64,000 nt of DNA from Thermococcus eurythermalis (GTDB taxonomy: Archaea > Methanobacteriota_B > Thermococci > Thermococcales > Thermococcaceae). Below, one piece after another: positions 33,986-40,882 of this stretch; position 1 is the first letter of the stretch; every line of letters starts with the position of its first letter. Below the pieces are notes generated by a model. That model searched no databases. It was not told the origin of the DNA and was given only the letters and a program-made list of their open reading frames with translations. The stretch spans positions 2,046,001 to 2,110,000 of the forward strand of contig NZ_CP008887.1 in the NCBI RefSeq assembly GCF_000769655.1, written 5' to 3'. A program made the translations under genes and the position numbers.

Positions 33986-34904
33986 ATGCGCTGGAGTGAG
34001 ATTCCGAGGGAAGCCAGGGCATACATGCTCTACCACACGCTCATCGCTCCCGGCCTGATAGTCTGGACACTTCTACCGCGCCTACGAGCAGGTAATCTAT
34101 CCGAGGGACAAATACGAAGAGATTTTCGCCTGGCACCTCCGTCTGCCCGAGATATCGAGACTGATTACTTTTCCGATTATGGGCTACCTCCTCAGCTACG
34201 TCTATCCCGGGCCGGAGAGCTACCGCTGGGCGTTCATATTCTTCGGCCTCTTCTCGGCCGTCACGGTGGCCTACATATGGTTCTTCCTGCCCTCGGTCGG
34301 CAGGGAGGAGCGCATCAGTCAGAAGGGCTTCACGTTCAAGGCCGGTGAGTTCAAGCTCCTCCTTGCCTTTGAGGCGTTGCTGACGCTCGCCTGGTCCTTA
34401 GCTCCTGAAATCGTGCTGATTAACTACGTCATCTTCGTGCTTCATAAGACAGTCTTCGAGGTGACGCTGATAGCCTGCGCCACCAGCATTGCCTCGATAA
34501 TAGGAACCTACGCCAGCGAGAGGGTTCCAAAAGAGAAAGGATTCCAGGCCATCGGCCTCGGCATGTTCATCAACGCCTTCTATGCTCTGGTCATGGCGCT
34601 CTCCCCGCCTTTCTGGGTGGCGCTGGCTGTTTATGCTCTCGGTGACTTCGGGAGCACGCTCTGGTTCCCCTTCTACCGCTCCTGGATGTTCAAGTTAATC
34701 CCGAAAGAGAAGGCCAGCGAGTTCCACGCGGTGATATCGAGCTACCGGAAGCTCCTCGGCGTATTTACGCCAGCCATAGCCGGAGCTTTAGCAAGCATTC
34801 ACGCGACGTTGCCTTATGGTGCAAGTCTGGTGCTGTTTTTGATTGCCGGGGCGATGTTCTGGGTGCTGGCGAGGAAAGATATTTATCAGAAAAGGATGAA
34901 GTAA
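33986..34904 (+). pseudogene. MFS transporter pseudogene with internal deletion
   Basis: The first 29 residues (MRWSEIPREARAYMLYHTLI then APGLIVWTL) are a standard MFS start. The frame then shifts near 34070 into FYRAYEQVIYPRDKYEEIF, which belongs to a later loop, and continues from MGYLLSYVYPGPES through about seven membrane segments to 34904. The middle membrane segments are missing. At about 305 codons it is short of the usual 400. Deletion plus frameshift mark it as dead. Confidence 0.75.
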
Positions 34905-35190: not shown

Positions 35191-35539
35191 TGGTAGCCCG
35201 GTGGTCAAAAGCTACGAAATCCTTGACTACAAGGAGGGGGAGAGTTTTTATTTTCTGAAAATCAAGGCGGTTCTGGTAGATGGGAGCGTTCTTCATATCA
35301 GGGAATTCGTGTCAGAGGAGGAGTACAACTACTCCTTCCAATGGCAGAGAAACGGGAACCTGATAATCAGATGGGACAACGCATCGCATCACAGGGGCAT
35401 CGAAACGTTTCCACATCACAAGCACGTTGGCTCCAAGGACAACGTACAGCCTTCAAAAGAAATCTCTCTTGAAGACATCCTGGGAATTATTGAGGAGAAA
35501 ATTAAACCCTCGTCCTCAGCCTCCAGCCATCTATGTTGA
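35165..35539 (+). CDS. TumE-family toxin-like protein (DUF6516)
   Basis: The 124-aa protein matches the DUF6516/TumE pattern: EEEYNYSFQWQRNGNLIIRWDN, then ASHHRGIETFPHHKHVGS, then LEDILGIIEEKIK (quoted in short pieces). The conserved RWDN and PHHKH residues are expected to be functional. Such proteins are toxins paired with small antitoxins. It ends within the convergent small gene of the RiPP-like cassette. Confidence 0.72.
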   Translation: MLRELELLDGSPVVKSYEILDYKEGESFYFLKIKAVLVDGSVLHIREFVSEEEYNYSFQWQRNGNLIIRWDNASHHRGIETFPHHKHVGSKDNVQPSKEISLEDILGIIEEKIKPSSSASSHLC

Positions 35540-35685
35540 AACCGCCCATCTTCTCAAGGACATGAGTTATCAAAGCCTCGGCGTTCTCGGTTCCGAGTTC
35601 CCGTGAGCAAAGCCGCCTCAACGACCTCGTTTTCTTCCCAGGGCTTGAGGAACTTTCCGAGGGCGACTTCCCAGGGACGCACCAC
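35502..35685 (-). pseudogene. Frameshifted small gene downstream of the ABC ATPase
   Basis: The first frame gives VRPWEVALGKFLKPWEE then NEVVEAALLT from a GTG at 35685 behind GGGGTGATTT. The second, one base shifted near 35602, gives GTENAEALITHVLEKMG and GFNIDGWRLRTRV. Removing one base from GGGAA restores a 60-aa protein. Its start overlaps the ATPase stop, so it was part of the same operon. Function unknown. Confidence 0.5.
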
Positions 35686-35688
35686 AAA

Positions 35689-36576
35689 TCACCCCTCGTA
35701 GAGCATCGCGTAGACCTCCTCAAGGCTCGGCTCCTTTCTCTTGACCTCCTCAACCTTCAGGCCCGCCCTCACAAGGAGGGCGTTTATCTCCGATGGCTCG
35801 GCGTTCTTCAGGGCTATGTAACCCCTCACGACCTCCGGGGAATAGCCCTTCTCCCGGAGAACCGCGATGGCCCTCTCAACATCGGCCACATTCACGAGGA
35901 CGGCCTCTTCCGTTGGTGCGCTCCTCCGGAATTCCTCAAGGTTTCCGGAGAAGAGAGCCCGTCCCTCGTGGATTACCGTCACGGTGTCGCAGACCTCATC
36001 GACGTCGCTGAGGATGTGCGTCGAGAAAACGATGGAGGCGTCATTCTTCCTCGCATACTCTTTCAGGAACCGCTTGAACTTAAGCCTCCACTCCGGGTCG
36101 AGGCCCCTCGTGGGCTCGTCGAGGATTAAGACTTCTGGGCTTCCGAGAAAGGCCCTCGCCATTGCTACCCTCCTCTGCGTCCCACTGGAGAGCGAGGAAA
36201 CCTTTTTGTCTGTGTATTCTTCGAGCTCAAAAAACTCAAGGAGCTCCCTCAGCCCCCTCTCGTCATAAACTCCCTTCAGCAGGGCGTAGCGCCTGAGGTT
36301 GTCTCGCACTGAGAGATTGGGGTAGAGGAGGTCGTACTCGGGCAGGTAACCAATCCTCCCCCTTATTTCAGGGTTCTTGAGAGGATCAACGCCGAGGACT
36401 TCCACCCTACCGGAGTCCGGGACGAGAAGACCGAGAATCAGCCGAAAGGTCGTTGTCTTGCCTGCCCCGTTGTGGCCCAGGTATGCGTGGATCTCACCCG
36501 GCTTTACGGTTAAGCTTATCCCGCGGAGGACTTCCTTCCCGGCTATGCTCTTCCTTACGTTTTCGAGGACAATCAT
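35689..36576 (-). CDS. ABC transporter ATP-binding protein
   Basis: The 295-aa ATPase has Walker A LGHNGAGKTT at residues 33-42, signature LSSGTQRR, Walker B VLILDEPTRG and a switch histidine in STHILSDVD. The C-terminal extension (NVADVERAIAVLREK onwards) is common in ABC-2-type ATPases. It lies 9 bp downstream of a membrane permease and would drive export with the two permeases upstream. Confidence 0.9.
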   Translation of the reverse strand: MIVLENVRKSIAGKEVLRGISLTVKPGEIHAYLGHNGAGKTTTFRLILGLLVPDSGRVEVLGVDPLKNPEIRGRIGYLPEYDLLYPNLSVRDNLRRYALLKGVYDERGLRELLEFFELEEYTDKKVSSLSSGTQRRVAMARAFLGSPEVLILDEPTRGLDPEWRLKFKRFLKEYARKNDASIVFSTHILSDVDEVCDTVTVIHEGRALFSGNLEEFRRSAPTEEAVLVNVADVERAIAVLREKGYSPEVVRGYIALKNAEPSEINALLVRAGLKVEEVKRKEPSLEEVYAMLYEG

Positions 36577-36585
36577 GCAATCACC

Positions 36586-37254
36586 TCAGACGAGCACCAT
36601 TTTCTCGGCGAGTCTTTCTCCGAGGGGGTGAATAATCAAGTAGGAGACTGCAAGTGCGCCCATGGACATCAGGAGCGATAACACAAGTGCAATCTCCAAT
36701 GAGAAGCCAACTCCAAAGTATTTGGGAATGCACGCGGGCCCAAAGTATGCCGTGAAGAAAATTATGAGCTTTGCCACGTCGAGGTACTTTGACTGAAAGA
36801 GGAGTGTTATCAGGATTATGAGGAACGTGAAGCTGAAGAGCGCCGGGACTGAGATTAGAATCCCGATGGACACCGTTGTTAATGATATTGGAGTGCCCAC
36901 GTGGAGGGCTATGAACCATCCCGCGACACTTCCAACTGCAATTCCCGCGATTCCAATAATGAAGCTCGCGAGGGCTCTCATGGAGATAAACTTAACCGGA
37001 TCGAATGGAAGGCTGAGGAGCACCTCGTGGATTCCAAGGAGCTTCTCTTTGGCAACCGAACCACCCAGGAAAAGGGAAATCAGGACGGCAATGGAGAAGC
37101 TCGACGTTCCGACGATTGCATCGCTCGGAAGGGGGGTCCAGCTCGCGAACATGTAAACAACCGCTACCACAGAGGGAATCCCGATGAGGTAGAATCCGAA
37201 CTGCTTCGCTGTGTATTTAATCTCCTCAGGAAGTTGAGTCCATGTTAATCCCAT
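36586..37254 (-). CDS. ABC-2-type permease 1
   Basis: The 222-aa protein has about six membrane segments and starts MGLTWTQLPEEIKYTAKQFG. It is a paralogue of the next gene upstream, sharing the start TQLxEExKYTAK, the loop KEKLLGIHEVLLSLPFDP and the PLGERLAEKMVLV end. It should form a homo- or heterodimeric channel with the ATPase encoded 9 bp downstream. The frame is open to 37329, but ATG 37254 fits the shared start. Confidence 0.85.
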   Translation of the reverse strand: MGLTWTQLPEEIKYTAKQFGFYLIGIPSVVAVVYMFASWTPLPSDAIVGTSSFSIAVLISLFLGGSVAKEKLLGIHEVLLSLPFDPVKFISMRALASFIIGIAGIAVGSVAGWFIALHVGTPISLTTVSIGILISVPALFSFTFLIILITLLFQSKYLDVAKLIIFFTAYFGPACIPKYFGVGFSLEIALVLSLLMSMGALAVSYLIIHPLGERLAEKMVLV

Positions 37255-37299
37255 TTTTCCACCCCCAGGGCTTTTCCCGTATTGGACAGGAGCCCAAAT

Positions 37300-37348
37300 G
37301 GGGTTCTTTCCATCCCCGCCTTTTCTCAAAGACTATCATGGAACCACC
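37300..37348 (-). pseudogene. Remnant of a second ABC ATPase start
   Basis: Just after the stop of permease 2 the sequence GAGGTGGTTCCATGATAGTC aligns with GAGGTGATTGCATGATTGTC, the junction between permease 1 and the intact ATPase gene. The few encoded residues MIVFEK resemble MIVLEN. Everything after that is lost. It looks like the start of a deleted duplicate ATPase gene. Confidence 0.5.
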
Positions 37349-38017
37349 TCACATCAGCACCATTCTCTCTACGAGGCCGTCACCCAGAGACCTCACGATT
37401 AAGATAGAAATAATAGAAATCCCCGCCGAAAGGATTAGAGACATGACCAGAGCGAGCTTCAAAGACAGAACGTTTTCGAAGTATCGCGGGACGTATAGGG
37501 GAACGATGAACGCCACAAAACCCACTGCAACCTTCACGGCGTTGAACCACGCGGACTGGAAGAGAAGCGTTGTTAGAATCACGAAGAAAGTGAAGGTGAA
37601 GAGCAGGGGCCTCGAAATCAGCAGTCCGGAGAGCATGATGGTCAACGGAACGTGGACTCCGCTGTGCCAAGCAAGGAGCAGTCCGACGAAGCTTCCCAAG
37701 AGAACTCCAATAACTTCAATGACGAATCCGGCAAGCGTTTTGAGAATAAAGAGGCGCGTGGGAGGGAACGGAAGCGAGAGGAGGAGTTCGTGAATGCCCA
37801 GGAGCTTCTCCCGGAAAACTGCCCCGCTGAAGAAGAGCGGGAACATTATGGCGAGTGAAATGCTGGATAGGCCGACGATTGTCCCGCTCGAAACGGGAAA
37901 CCAGCCGGACAACCAGTAGATTGTCGCCGTTACCCAGGGGATGGAAATCAGGTTAAGCCCAATGTGCTTCGCGGTGTACTTTACTTCTTCGCGGAGCTGG
38001 GTGAAGGTTAGCTTCAT
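37349..38017 (-). CDS. ABC-2-type permease 2
   Basis: The 222-aa six-segment membrane protein starts MKLTFTQLREEVKYTAKHIG and has REKLLGIHELLLSLPFPP and RSLGDGLVERMVLM, both shared with permease 1. It lies 22 bp downstream of the MFS gene, so it belongs to the same transcription unit as the radical SAM gene. The two permeases arose by tandem duplication. Confidence 0.85.
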   Translation of the reverse strand: MKLTFTQLREEVKYTAKHIGLNLISIPWVTATIYWLSGWFPVSSGTIVGLSSISLAIMFPLFFSGAVFREKLLGIHELLLSLPFPPTRLFILKTLAGFVIEVIGVLLGSFVGLLLAWHSGVHVPLTIMLSGLLISRPLLFTFTFFVILTTLLFQSAWFNAVKVAVGFVAFIVPLYVPRYFENVLSLKLALVMSLILSAGISIISILIVRSLGDGLVERMVLM

Positions 38018-38039: not shown

Positions 38040-39206
38040 TTAAGTGCTCACCATTCTAAAAACCCATATGTAAATGAGGCCAAGGAGAGCAAACACAGGT
38101 ATCATAAGGGCAAAACTTCCGACGAGTCCAGAAAAATTCACCAATCTGCCAATTAGAGCGTAGAACAAGGCGCCAACCAAAGCGGAGGCGCTCATCCTCG
38201 TCGAGATTATTGTACTGCGGTACTCGTTTGGAATGACATCATTGATTAAGAGAGTGTAACCGGTGAAGTAAATCGCCTCTCCGAGGGAGTATAGAGCCAG
38301 TGCCAAGACACCTATAATTTTGGCGTGCATTCCAGCGAACAGCAGATAGGAGAGGAACATCAATGAAAGAGAAACCCTAAACAGCGGAGCGTGGGATTCC
38401 TTCTTACCCTTCCCAACCCACAAAATCAGAAATCCTGCCAATATGCCCATCACGGATTTCAGGGAGTAGAGCAAGCCAAGAGTTTCCACTTTGAGGTTAA
38501 GAACGTTGGTAAAGTATAGTTGCCACACGTATATGAAGTGTAAGTGAGGGAATGTAAAGAGCATATCCGCGATAAAAAGGTAGCGCAGAATGTGAGTGTG
38601 GATAATGAAGGAAATACCCTCCCCAACTATTGACAGGATACTCTTCCCCTTATCTCCGTAGTTTTCGTTAAGAAGGAGAACCGCAAGAAGGGCCCCGAGA
38701 AAGTTCAGGACGGCCGCGGCGTAGAAAACACTCCTCATCCCTGTGAGAGCAACGATTGTGGCAGTGATAATACCTATCAGGAGTGAATTCGCACTGTTTA
38801 TCGACCTCAACAAACCGTAGGCCTTCTTGGCCTCATTCCTTTCCAAACCCCGGGTTTTGACCTCTGTGAAGTACCAAGCCTGAAGGGTCCCCGAGATGAA
38901 GGAAGAACCAAGAGCGGCAAGGGCATAGGCTGGAGCACATACGAAGAAGTTACGGAAAGCACCTATGAGTGCCATGCTGAGGCCGTAAAGGAGCAGACCG
39001 ATGGCGAGGGTTTTCCTTCTTCCGTACCTGTCGGCAATTCCGCCTGTAAAAACGTCGGTTGCAAACATGACGAGAAGATAGAGCGAATACAGGTAGCCAA
39101 CCTGTGAATAGCTCAGACCAAGGGCATCCTTGAAGTAAACTGTGAGAACAGGCGTTATGATGTTTCTGCTGTAAAAGATAACAACGCTAACCAGAATCAT
39201 TTTCAT
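38040..39206 (-). CDS. MFS transporter of the RiPP-like cassette
   Basis: The 388-aa protein has about 12 membrane segments and the MFS motif A loop GGIADRYGRRKTLAIG near residue 60. It has a long polar loop between the two halves (NENYGDKGKSILSIVGEG). It lies 57 bp downstream of the radical SAM gene, as expected for a peptide exporter or self-immunity transporter. No clear ribosome site precedes ATG 39206, and the same frame is open back to the radical SAM stop. Confidence 0.8.
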   Translation of the reverse strand: MKMILVSVVIFYSRNIITPVLTVYFKDALGLSYSQVGYLYSLYLLVMFATDVFTGGIADRYGRRKTLAIGLLLYGLSMALIGAFRNFFVCAPAYALAALGSSFISGTLQAWYFTEVKTRGLERNEAKKAYGLLRSINSANSLLIGIITATIVALTGMRSVFYAAAVLNFLGALLAVLLLNENYGDKGKSILSIVGEGISFIIHTHILRYLFIADMLFTFPHLHFIYVWQLYFTNVLNLKVETLGLLYSLKSVMGILAGFLILWVGKGKKESHAPLFRVSLSLMFLSYLLFAGMHAKIIGVLALALYSLGEAIYFTGYTLLINDVIPNEYRSTIISTRMSASALVGALFYALIGRLVNFSGLVGSFALMIPVFALLGLIYIWVFRMVST

Positions 39207-39263: not shown

Positions 39264-40595
39264 TCACTCTTCAAGCAAGTGGTATGAGTATTCTGGAAGC
39301 TCTAGTGGAAACCTGCCCGATACAAAGGGACATTTAGTTAAATCCCTCCTATTTAAGGCGTCTTCCCAGATACGTTTTAGAGGCTCTTGTCTAAGATCTC
39401 CGAGGAAAATATCCCTAACACCACTACACTGGATTACCTTTCCATCATATCTAATTCTCAAGTCCATAGTTCCAGTAGGGCAGTTATCATAATTAAATTC
39501 TGGTGTTAGAGCAGGAGCATATATGGAGATAAACGGACGATAGTCCACGGATACATCCAACTCTCTATTTGCTTTATCCACGATTTCAAAAAACTGAACT
39601 AACATTTTTGGGGTCAAAAGTGCAGGTTTATTATTAATGGCCCCTTTCCCAATTGGAAGGTAATGAAGTAGGGTTACGTGCGAAACACCCAATGAATCCA
39701 GAAGAACTAAATGATCCCATAGATTTTGAATATTGATTGTACTAACAACAGATTTGATATGCACTTCAATATTCTCACTCCTCAATAGCCTGATGTTCTC
39801 AACAATTTGATTAAATATTCTTTTAGCAATACTCAAATCGTCTAAGTTCATGTATTTCGCATAATCCATTGGATTACCATGTAAACTTACTACCACGGGC
39901 ATCGGAGGCATTAGTTTCAATGCAGCTAACTGTTGCTTTATCAAGTAACCGTTAGTTATTACAGTAGAGTACATATCATATTCTCGGATTTCTCTAATTA
40001 TACTATAAAACTCCTTTCTAAGAAGGGGCTCACCACCAAGCAAAACAAAGTAAAATACCTCCATGTCGCTAGCCTGCTTTATTATATTGCACATCTCGTC
40101 AAATGAGAGGTCCTTTCCCACATTTTTGTCACCATATACATAGCAGAAATTGCAAGAGAAGTTACAATTTTTAGTTATCTCCCACACCAAACGTATTGGA
40201 GATTTAGGGCGAGGTATAATAGAGCTGATTTTTGGATCCCCTATTTTTGGATAGTTCTTGGAGGAAAAGGTTTTGTTTGGATTTATACTAACCACGTACT
40301 TTCCATACTCTCCAAGTGCCAATTTAATTGCATTAAGAAAGGAATCCAGTTCCCAGTTAGAAATCCCTTTATACTCCAATGTGTTCACAAGAGCACTATA
40401 ATCTAAGTTACCATACGTAATGAGATGCTCCTTTATATAGCCAGCTATTTCCAACCCCTTGTCTGTAACAACAACGGGAGCTTTTAGTTTGGGCAGGAAC
40501 AGTAAACCCCCATTATTTTCTTTTCTTAATAATAACCCATCAAGATATTTGATAAATTCTTCATTTGGCATAGAAAAAATGGAAGAAAGTTTCAT
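39264..40595 (-). CDS. Radical SAM peptide maturase with PqqD-like N-terminus and SPASM-type cysteines
   Basis: The 443-aa protein has the radical SAM motif with C144, C148 and C151 (CNFSCNFC) for the 4Fe-4S cluster that cleaves SAM, and the GGEP motif at 187-190. C372, C390 and C422 form a C-terminal cluster like SPASM or Twitch domains. The first 100 residues (LLFLPKLKAPVVVTDKGLEI) look like the PqqD-like domain that binds RiPP precursors. It lies 13 bp after a 45-aa peptide gene. The gene is AT-rich. The crosslink or modification formed is unknown. Confidence 0.85.
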   Translation of the reverse strand: MKLSSIFSMPNEEFIKYLDGLLLRKENNGGLLFLPKLKAPVVVTDKGLEIAGYIKEHLITYGNLDYSALVNTLEYKGISNWELDSFLNAIKLALGEYGKYVVSINPNKTFSSKNYPKIGDPKISSIIPRPKSPIRLVWEITKNCNFSCNFCYVYGDKNVGKDLSFDEMCNIIKQASDMEVFYFVLLGGEPLLRKEFYSIIREIREYDMYSTVITNGYLIKQQLAALKLMPPMPVVVSLHGNPMDYAKYMNLDDLSIAKRIFNQIVENIRLLRSENIEVHIKSVVSTINIQNLWDHLVLLDSLGVSHVTLLHYLPIGKGAINNKPALLTPKMLVQFFEIVDKANRELDVSVDYRPFISIYAPALTPEFNYDNCPTGTMDLRIRYDGKVIQCSGVRDIFLGDLRQEPLKRIWEDALNRRDLTKCPFVSGRFPLELPEYSYHLLEE

Positions 40596-40608: not shown

Positions 40609-40746
40609 TCAACTTTTTTCAATATGAATCTGTGGGAGCTGGAGAAATGTTCCAGCATCCTCATTGTAGTGCCCACATGCCCCAACTTTTGCAACTTTTT
40701 CCAGGACTCCCACCACATATGTAGATTCATTTACTTCGGGCTCCAT
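40609..40746 (-). CDS. Candidate RiPP precursor peptide, 45 aa
   Basis: A short frame encodes MEPEVNESTYVVGVLEKV, then AKVGACGHYNEDAG and TFLQLPQIHIEKS. It is behind a near-perfect ribosome site, GGAGGTGATGTT. It has a leader-like acidic start, a single cysteine at residue 24, and a polar C-terminal half (core candidate about residues 24-45). It stops 13 bp before the radical SAM gene, the usual arrangement for a precursor and its maturase. No similar peptide is known to me. Confidence 0.65.
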   Translation of the reverse strand: MEPEVNESTYVVGVLEKVAKVGACGHYNEDAGTFLQLPQIHIEKS

Positions 40747-40750
40747 AACA

Positions 40751-40801
40751 TCACCTCCAAAGTTATGTTCAACAATATAAAACTGCAGGTAAACTTAAAA
40801 A
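40751..40801 (-). promoter_or_regulatory. Promoter and ribosome site of the RiPP-like operon
   Basis: Read on the minus strand, a TTTTTAAGTTT box (40791-40801) predicts a start near 40771, leaving a leader of about 25 bases that contains GGAGGTGA (40751-40758) before the precursor ATG at 40746. A second TATA-like TTTTATATTG at about 40773-40782 lies too close to give that leader. Confidence 0.45.
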
Positions 40802-40882
40802 TTTTTTTAAAAGCAACAATTATCAACTAAAGGTTTAAAATCAAAGAGAAAAAGGTATGAAAAAGAAAGTTACTAGAAGCGT

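What the first reader, a model, noticed from the sequence alone, without database searches (positions are those of the whole stretch)
40609..40746. 45-aa candidate precursor peptide, likely missed by gene callers
The frame begins behind GGAGGTGATGTT, one of the strongest ribosome sites in the window, and stops 13 bp before the radical SAM start. It has a single cysteine (C24) and a polar C-terminal half. These are the features of a leader plus core. Its length is below the usual cut-off, so it could be unannotated.
Basis: partly seen in the sequence, partly recalled or inferred. Interest (0 to 1): 0.8.

Follow-up and report, generated by a model that had tools for sequence, protein, structure and literature searches.

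The report
Tiny gene feeding a radical-SAM enzyme
A 45-residue gene in a heat-loving Thermococcus is real and strongly conserved, and it always travels with the radical-SAM enzyme next to it, so it most likely encodes the raw peptide that this enzyme chemically modifies before a transporter exports it.

Summary
The 45-aa frame at 40609-40746 (minus strand) is there as described. It starts behind GGAGGTGATGTT, has one cysteine (C24), and stops 13 nt before the radical SAM start. It is a real gene. The same 4 of 94 Thermococcaceae genomes carry both peptide and enzyme. The pair always sits after nadM and is always followed by the same MFS transporter. Between G000 and G048 the peptide shows 21 synonymous against 8 nonsynonymous changes (dN/dS about 0.05; none of 20,000 simulations was as conserved). 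Twenty-two residues, including C24, are invariant in all four. The overlapping longer start of the enzyme (488 aa) is not supported. The enzyme has a radical SAM domain and a three-cysteine twitch/SPASM-like domain. Its model matches RiPP maturases best (SkfB, SuiB, PqqE, CteB). Best explanation: precursor of a radical-SAM-modified peptide. A thioether at C24 is plausible but unproven. The N-terminal domain looks RRE-like, but that test is inconclusive. No known precursor family matches. Other Thermococcus lack the pair yet keep the transporter; one copy (G028) is decaying. A second, unrelated 35-aa peptide family sits before PqqD-type radical SAM genes in other Thermococcus. Verdict: a new family of a known kind.

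The parts
40609..40746 (-). 45-aa candidate precursor peptide, single Cys C24
   Evidence: conserved in 4 genomes, dN/dS about 0.05 (G000-G048), 22 invariant residues
40747..40758 (-). GGAGGTGATGTT ribosome-binding site; GGAGGTGATGTT in G061, GGAAGTGATGCT in G048
40791..40808 (-). probable archaeal BRE/TATA promoter element (AAAAAATTTTTAAGTTT), conserved after nadM also in genomes that lack peptide and enzyme
   Evidence: alignment; promoter role inferred from position
39264..40595 (-). 443-aa radical SAM enzyme (CNFSCNFC) with three-Cys twitch/SPASM-like domain (C372, C390, C422) and an RRE-like N-terminal domain
   Evidence: start at 40595 rather than 40730 supported
38040..39206 (-). MFS transporter, directly downstream of the radical SAM gene in all four genomes
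37349..38017 (-). ABC-2-like permease (weak Pfam matches only)
   Evidence: follows the MFS also in genomes without the peptide
36586..37329 (-). second ABC-2-like permease, absent in G024
35689..36576 (-). ABC transporter ATPase of the DrrA type

Best explanation
The ORF is the precursor gene of a small radical-SAM-modified peptide (a RiPP). Proposed order: (1) peptide and radical SAM enzyme are co-transcribed from the promoter after nadM and translated from adjacent ribosome sites [gene reality shown; co-transcription inferred]. (2) The peptide's conserved segment, probably around S8-V21, docks on the enzyme's N-terminal RRE-like domain [inferred]. (3) The 5'-deoxyadenosyl radical takes a hydrogen from a core residue after G22, and the auxiliary iron-sulphur cluster of the twitch domain helps close a bond. 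The simplest guess is a thioether from C24 to a nearby residue such as H26, E29, D30 or F34, which are invariant [inferred, about 0.45]. (4) The leader is cut off by a protease encoded elsewhere and the MFS transporter exports the product, with MFS and ABC genes possibly also giving self-protection [inferred]. The product would be a secreted signal or antimicrobial of a minority of Thermococcus strains, passed between species by recombination.
For: Perfect co-occurrence of peptide and enzyme in the same 4 of 94 genomes. Order nadM, peptide, radical SAM, MFS in all four. Strong purifying selection and rejection of the alternative frame. Twenty-two invariant residues including C24. Radical SAM and SPASM domains over Pfam cut-offs. 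By sequence SkfB is the only solved RiPP maturase that aligns over both the radical SAM and the C-terminal part (E 1.5e-7). By fold the top matches are RiPP/peptide maturases: SkfB E 4e-15, Z 24.6; SuiB Z 24.9; PqqE Z 23.9; CteB; ChlB. A published account gives SkfB the same layout of RRE, radical SAM barrel and twitch domain, with an adjacent precursor gene and export genes (PMC8172795). Module mobility: rSAM and MFS 98.7% identical to G061 at DNA level while nadM is 86%.
Against: No modified product, transcript or translation data. RRE not proven: Pfam finds none, profile comparison with PqqD proteins fails, and the structural match to CteB's RRE is weak (Z 4.1) on a two-sequence model. No maturation protease nearby. 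Residues 8-39 are so conserved that the usual fast-evolving core of an antimicrobial is not seen. The MFS and ABC genes also occur without peptide and enzyme in G024, G055, G057 and probably G049, so their link to the peptide is not exclusive. Only four sequences are known, two of them 96% alike.
Confidence: 0.82

Rival explanations
1. The peptide is modified by the enzyme but without the cysteine: epimerisation, a carbon-carbon crosslink or a cofactor-like rearrangement as in PQQ or mycofactocin.
For: PqqE, SuiB (C-C crosslink) and EpeE (epimerase) are also among the fold matches; extreme conservation of residues 8-39 would fit a fixed small product.
Against: C24 is invariant; no PqqA or mycofactocin model matches the peptide; C-terminus EKS is not the VY end of mycofactocin; patchy presence in 4 of 94 genomes does not fit a metabolic cofactor.
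Confidence: 0.35
2. The peptide is a small protein partner or regulator of the enzyme or transporter (chaperone, translational coupling leader), not its substrate.
For: The stop is 13 nt from the enzyme's start, so translational coupling is possible; conservation is along most of the length.
Against: A coupling leader needs no conserved amino acids, yet nonsynonymous change is strongly suppressed; 45 aa with Cys, no known partner family; the enzyme class by fold is peptide-modifying.
Confidence: 0.1
3. The ORF is spurious; the radical SAM gene really starts at 40730 and runs through it (488 aa).
For: That longer frame is open in G000 and G061 and partly in G048.
Against: In that frame changes are 5 synonymous to 21 nonsynonymous with 19 of 26 at codon position 2; it has stops in G028 and a stop within the peptide region in G048; the spacer between peptide stop and enzyme ATG varies in length.
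Confidence: 0.02

Closest known systems
SkfA/SkfB (sporulation killing factor, Bacillus subtilis sactipeptide)
   Same: Short precursor gene with a radical SAM enzyme that has a twitch-type C-terminal domain; export/resistance genes in the cluster; SkfB is the best fold match and aligns over both the barrel and the C-terminal part by sequence.
   Different: Sequence identity of the enzymes only about 20%; precursor unrelated, with one Cys where SKF has three named (Cys1, Cys4, Cys16); no protease or thioredoxin gene; archaeal host; exporter includes an MFS protein.
SuiA/SuiB (streptide) and other peptide maturases (CteB, PqqE, ChlB)
   Same: Enzyme fold, short peptide substrate.
   Different: CteB has a SPASM domain with two auxiliary clusters; here only three auxiliary cysteines; different precursor motifs.
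Second Thermococcus system: 35-aa peptide before PqqD-type radical SAM/SPASM genes (G037, G016, G063; peptide also in G066)
   Same: Same genus, same order of tiny gene then radical SAM enzyme, N-terminal PqqD domain over Pfam cut-off.
   Different: Unrelated peptide (FE-P-IVPL leader, Trp-rich end, no Cys), different enzyme subfamily with full SPASM.

Membership tests
Radical-SAM-modified RiPP precursor (general) | Short genuine coding gene next to the radical SAM gene | tested here: met
Radical-SAM-modified RiPP precursor (general) | Peptide and enzyme occur together across genomes | tested here: met
   same 4 of 94 genomes
Radical-SAM-modified RiPP precursor (general) | Enzyme has radical SAM core plus auxiliary SPASM/twitch domain | tested here: met
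   (PF04055, PF13186 over cut-off); C372-x12-G-x4-C390 and C422
Radical-SAM-modified RiPP precursor (general) | RRE (PqqD-like) domain for leader binding | tested here: inconclusive
   two strands plus three helices predicted, CteB Z 4.1 and PqqD Z 2.9; Pfam and profile comparison find nothing; distant cousin L016 aligns from residue 22 and has a sub-threshold PqqD match
Radical-SAM-modified RiPP precursor (general) | Enzyme modifies the peptide | not testable with these tools
   needs mass spectrometry
Sactipeptide / ranthipeptide | Cysteine donor in the core | tested here: met
   C24 invariant in four sequences
Sactipeptide / ranthipeptide | Cys-to-carbon thioether in the product | not testable with these tools
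   no product known
SCIFF ranthipeptide | Six cysteines in about forty-five residues | tested here: not met
   one cysteine
PqqA / mycofactocin precursor | Match to the curated precursor models; E-x3-Y (PqqA) or C-terminal V-Y (mycofactocin) | tested here: not met
   no such match; sequence has neither motif

The most novel reading that the evidence does not exclude
A hyperthermophilic archaeon makes a peptide with a crosslink chemistry not yet described (single invariant Cys in VGAC-x-H-x-x-ED, one auxiliary cluster), and the nadM-linked MFS/ABC genes kept by strains that lack the peptide are orphan immunity, which would make this an archaeal antimicrobial arms locus.
Probability: 0.2. Interest if true: 0.7.

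Novelty: new member of a known kind. Interest (0 to 1): 0.5.

Why it matters
I found no paper in the held library describing a radical-SAM RiPP in Thermococcales (the 2019 mBio survey of archaeal antimicrobial peptides is not held). This locus gives a precise and small test case: two genes, one substrate with a single cysteine, in a genus that includes genetically tractable species, with natural strains that have the pair, lack it, or carry a decaying copy. If the modification is shown, it gives a heat-stable peptide and maturase and a way to ask what archaea use such peptides for. It also shows how a longer spurious start of the neighbour can hide a real small gene.

Tried and rejected
Longer radical SAM start at 40730: rejected by substitution pattern. 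Weak peptide hits in 22 further genomes (E 0.01-2): short pieces, many inside long frames, in genomes without the enzyme; discarded. Plasmid, phage and viral collections: no peptide homologue (two Rhizobium flagellin hits at E 2-8 are chance). Genome-wide scan with the enzyme: only the G061 contig, but it uses exact peptide words, so distant relatives outside Thermococcus are not excluded. NCBIfam gives many heterogeneous radical SAM families far below cut-off, so no subfamily can be assigned. Profile comparison of the N-terminal domain with PqqD proteins: no match, but with three closely related sequences it has little power. Foldseek with the N-terminal domain alone gave no significant match. 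Bacterial promoter/terminator scan: nothing beyond chance, and not apt for archaea. Papers: none held on radical SAM precursors in Thermococcales.

Full report
What is there. The window is Thermococcus sp. chromosome (G000:C1:2046001-2110000; the closest contig carrying the enzyme is titled Thermococcus). On the minus strand, 40746-40609 encodes MEPEVNESTYVVGVLEKVAKVGACGHYNEDAGTFLQLPQIHIEKS. It starts directly behind GGAGGTGATGTT and ends 13 nt before the radical SAM gene. After the radical SAM gene (39264-40595) come an MFS transporter, two ABC-2-like permeases and an ABC ATPase on the same strand.

It is a gene. Homologues were found in three other genomes: G061 (96%), G048 (82%) and G028 (62% over the matched 39 residues). 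Between G000 and G048 there are 21 synonymous and 8 nonsynonymous changes (dS about 1.7, dN 0.08). In codons 8-39 the count is 15 to 2. Random placement of the same 29 substitutions gives 17.8 amino-acid differences on average, and never 8 or fewer in 20,000 trials. The competing frame, a radical SAM start at 40730, shows 5 synonymous to 21 nonsynonymous changes and stops in G028 and G048. The overlap may explain why an annotator would miss it; whether it is unannotated was not checked.

It belongs to the enzyme. Of 94 Thermococcaceae genomes, the peptide is found in four and the enzyme in the same four; a search over 115 genomes of the phylum adds none for the enzyme. The order nadM, peptide, radical SAM, MFS holds in all four, although the G061 and G048 contigs end inside the MFS gene. 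In G028 the peptide frame is open but the radical SAM gene is broken by at least two frame changes and the MFS gene is also broken. This looks like a decaying copy, although sequencing error is not excluded.

What the enzyme is. It has CNFSCNFC, a radical SAM domain and a SPASM-type domain over Pfam cut-offs, but only three auxiliary cysteines (C372, C390, C422). That fits a twitch rather than a full SPASM domain. Among solved structures, sequence search places SkfB over residues 133-411. The predicted model (mean pLDDT 69) matches SkfB, SuiB and PqqE best, with CteB and ChlB also high, all enzymes that modify peptides; viperin, MoaA and sugar-nucleotide radical SAM enzymes follow because they share the barrel. 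The published layout of SkfB is RRE, barrel, twitch domain (PMC8172795). The N-terminal 112 residues are predicted as two strands and three helices, the PqqD/RRE arrangement. The best RRE match is CteB residues 1-72 at Z 4.1, and sequence tests fail. The RRE is therefore likely but not shown.

How it probably works. Peptide and enzyme are made together. The conserved S8-V21 stretch is the likeliest leader contact, and G22 to Q39, with C24, H26, E29, D30, F34 and QLPQ invariant, the likeliest modified part. A single invariant cysteine and a SkfB-like enzyme point to one thioether bridge, but related enzymes also make C-C bonds or epimerise, so this step gets about 0.45. Export by the MFS protein is inferred from its constant place downstream. 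No protease gene is nearby.

Distribution and history. The radical SAM gene is 37% GC and the MFS 47%, against 53% for the window and 55% for nadM. Radical SAM and MFS DNA are 98.7% identical between G000 and G061 while nadM is 86%, so the module has been exchanged recently between species. The MFS gene also occurs directly after nadM in G024 (98.9% DNA identity), G055 and G057 without peptide or enzyme, and in G049 where the contig ends. The promoter-like stretch after nadM and the MFS leader are shared. In G055 and G057 about 15 nt before the MFS resemble the 3' end of the radical SAM gene, which hints at loss rather than non-acquisition; this is too short to be firm. Strains that keep the transporters without the peptide would fit retained immunity, but an independent transporter role is equally possible.

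Generality. Distant cousins of the enzyme in G037, G016 and G063 carry a PqqD domain over cut-off. Each is preceded by a short conserved peptide of a different family (about 35 aa, e.g. MVPMKTLQFEKPKIVPLKSKKTQWTIWGLWGKLPL), which is also found in G066. So Thermococcus holds at least two unrelated peptide and radical SAM pairs.

Verdict. It is a new precursor family (no Pfam, NCBIfam or PHROG match) of a known kind of system.

Noticed in passing
L065:973-1080 (G037), L160 (G066), L161 (G063), L162 (G016): A second, unrelated family of about 35-aa peptides, FE-[KE]-P-[KQ]-[IV]-VPL...TQWT-W..WGK, upstream of PqqD-domain radical SAM/SPASM genes in G037, G016 and G063 (peptide also in G066): another likely precursor and maturase pair.
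   Followed up: partly
L034:3649-7690 (G046:C67): Two tandem radical SAM/SPASM genes followed by an MFS transporter, with a 34-aa ORF upstream of the first: a possible third peptide-maturation locus.
   Followed up: no
window 33986-34904 (+): MFS gene split over two frames (120 and 241 aa) where G024 has an intact 393-aa homologue: apparent frameshift.
   Followed up: no
window 35502-35753 (-): Remnant of a nucleotidyltransferase-like gene that is intact (249 aa) at the same place in G024.
   Followed up: no
L012:8148-10760 (G028): Radical SAM and MFS genes broken by frame changes while the peptide frame stays open: a decaying copy or sequencing errors.
   Followed up: partly
window 38040-39206 against L098 (G024): MFS DNA is 98.9% identical although nadM is 87%: recent exchange of this transporter between species without peptide or enzyme.
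   Followed up: partly
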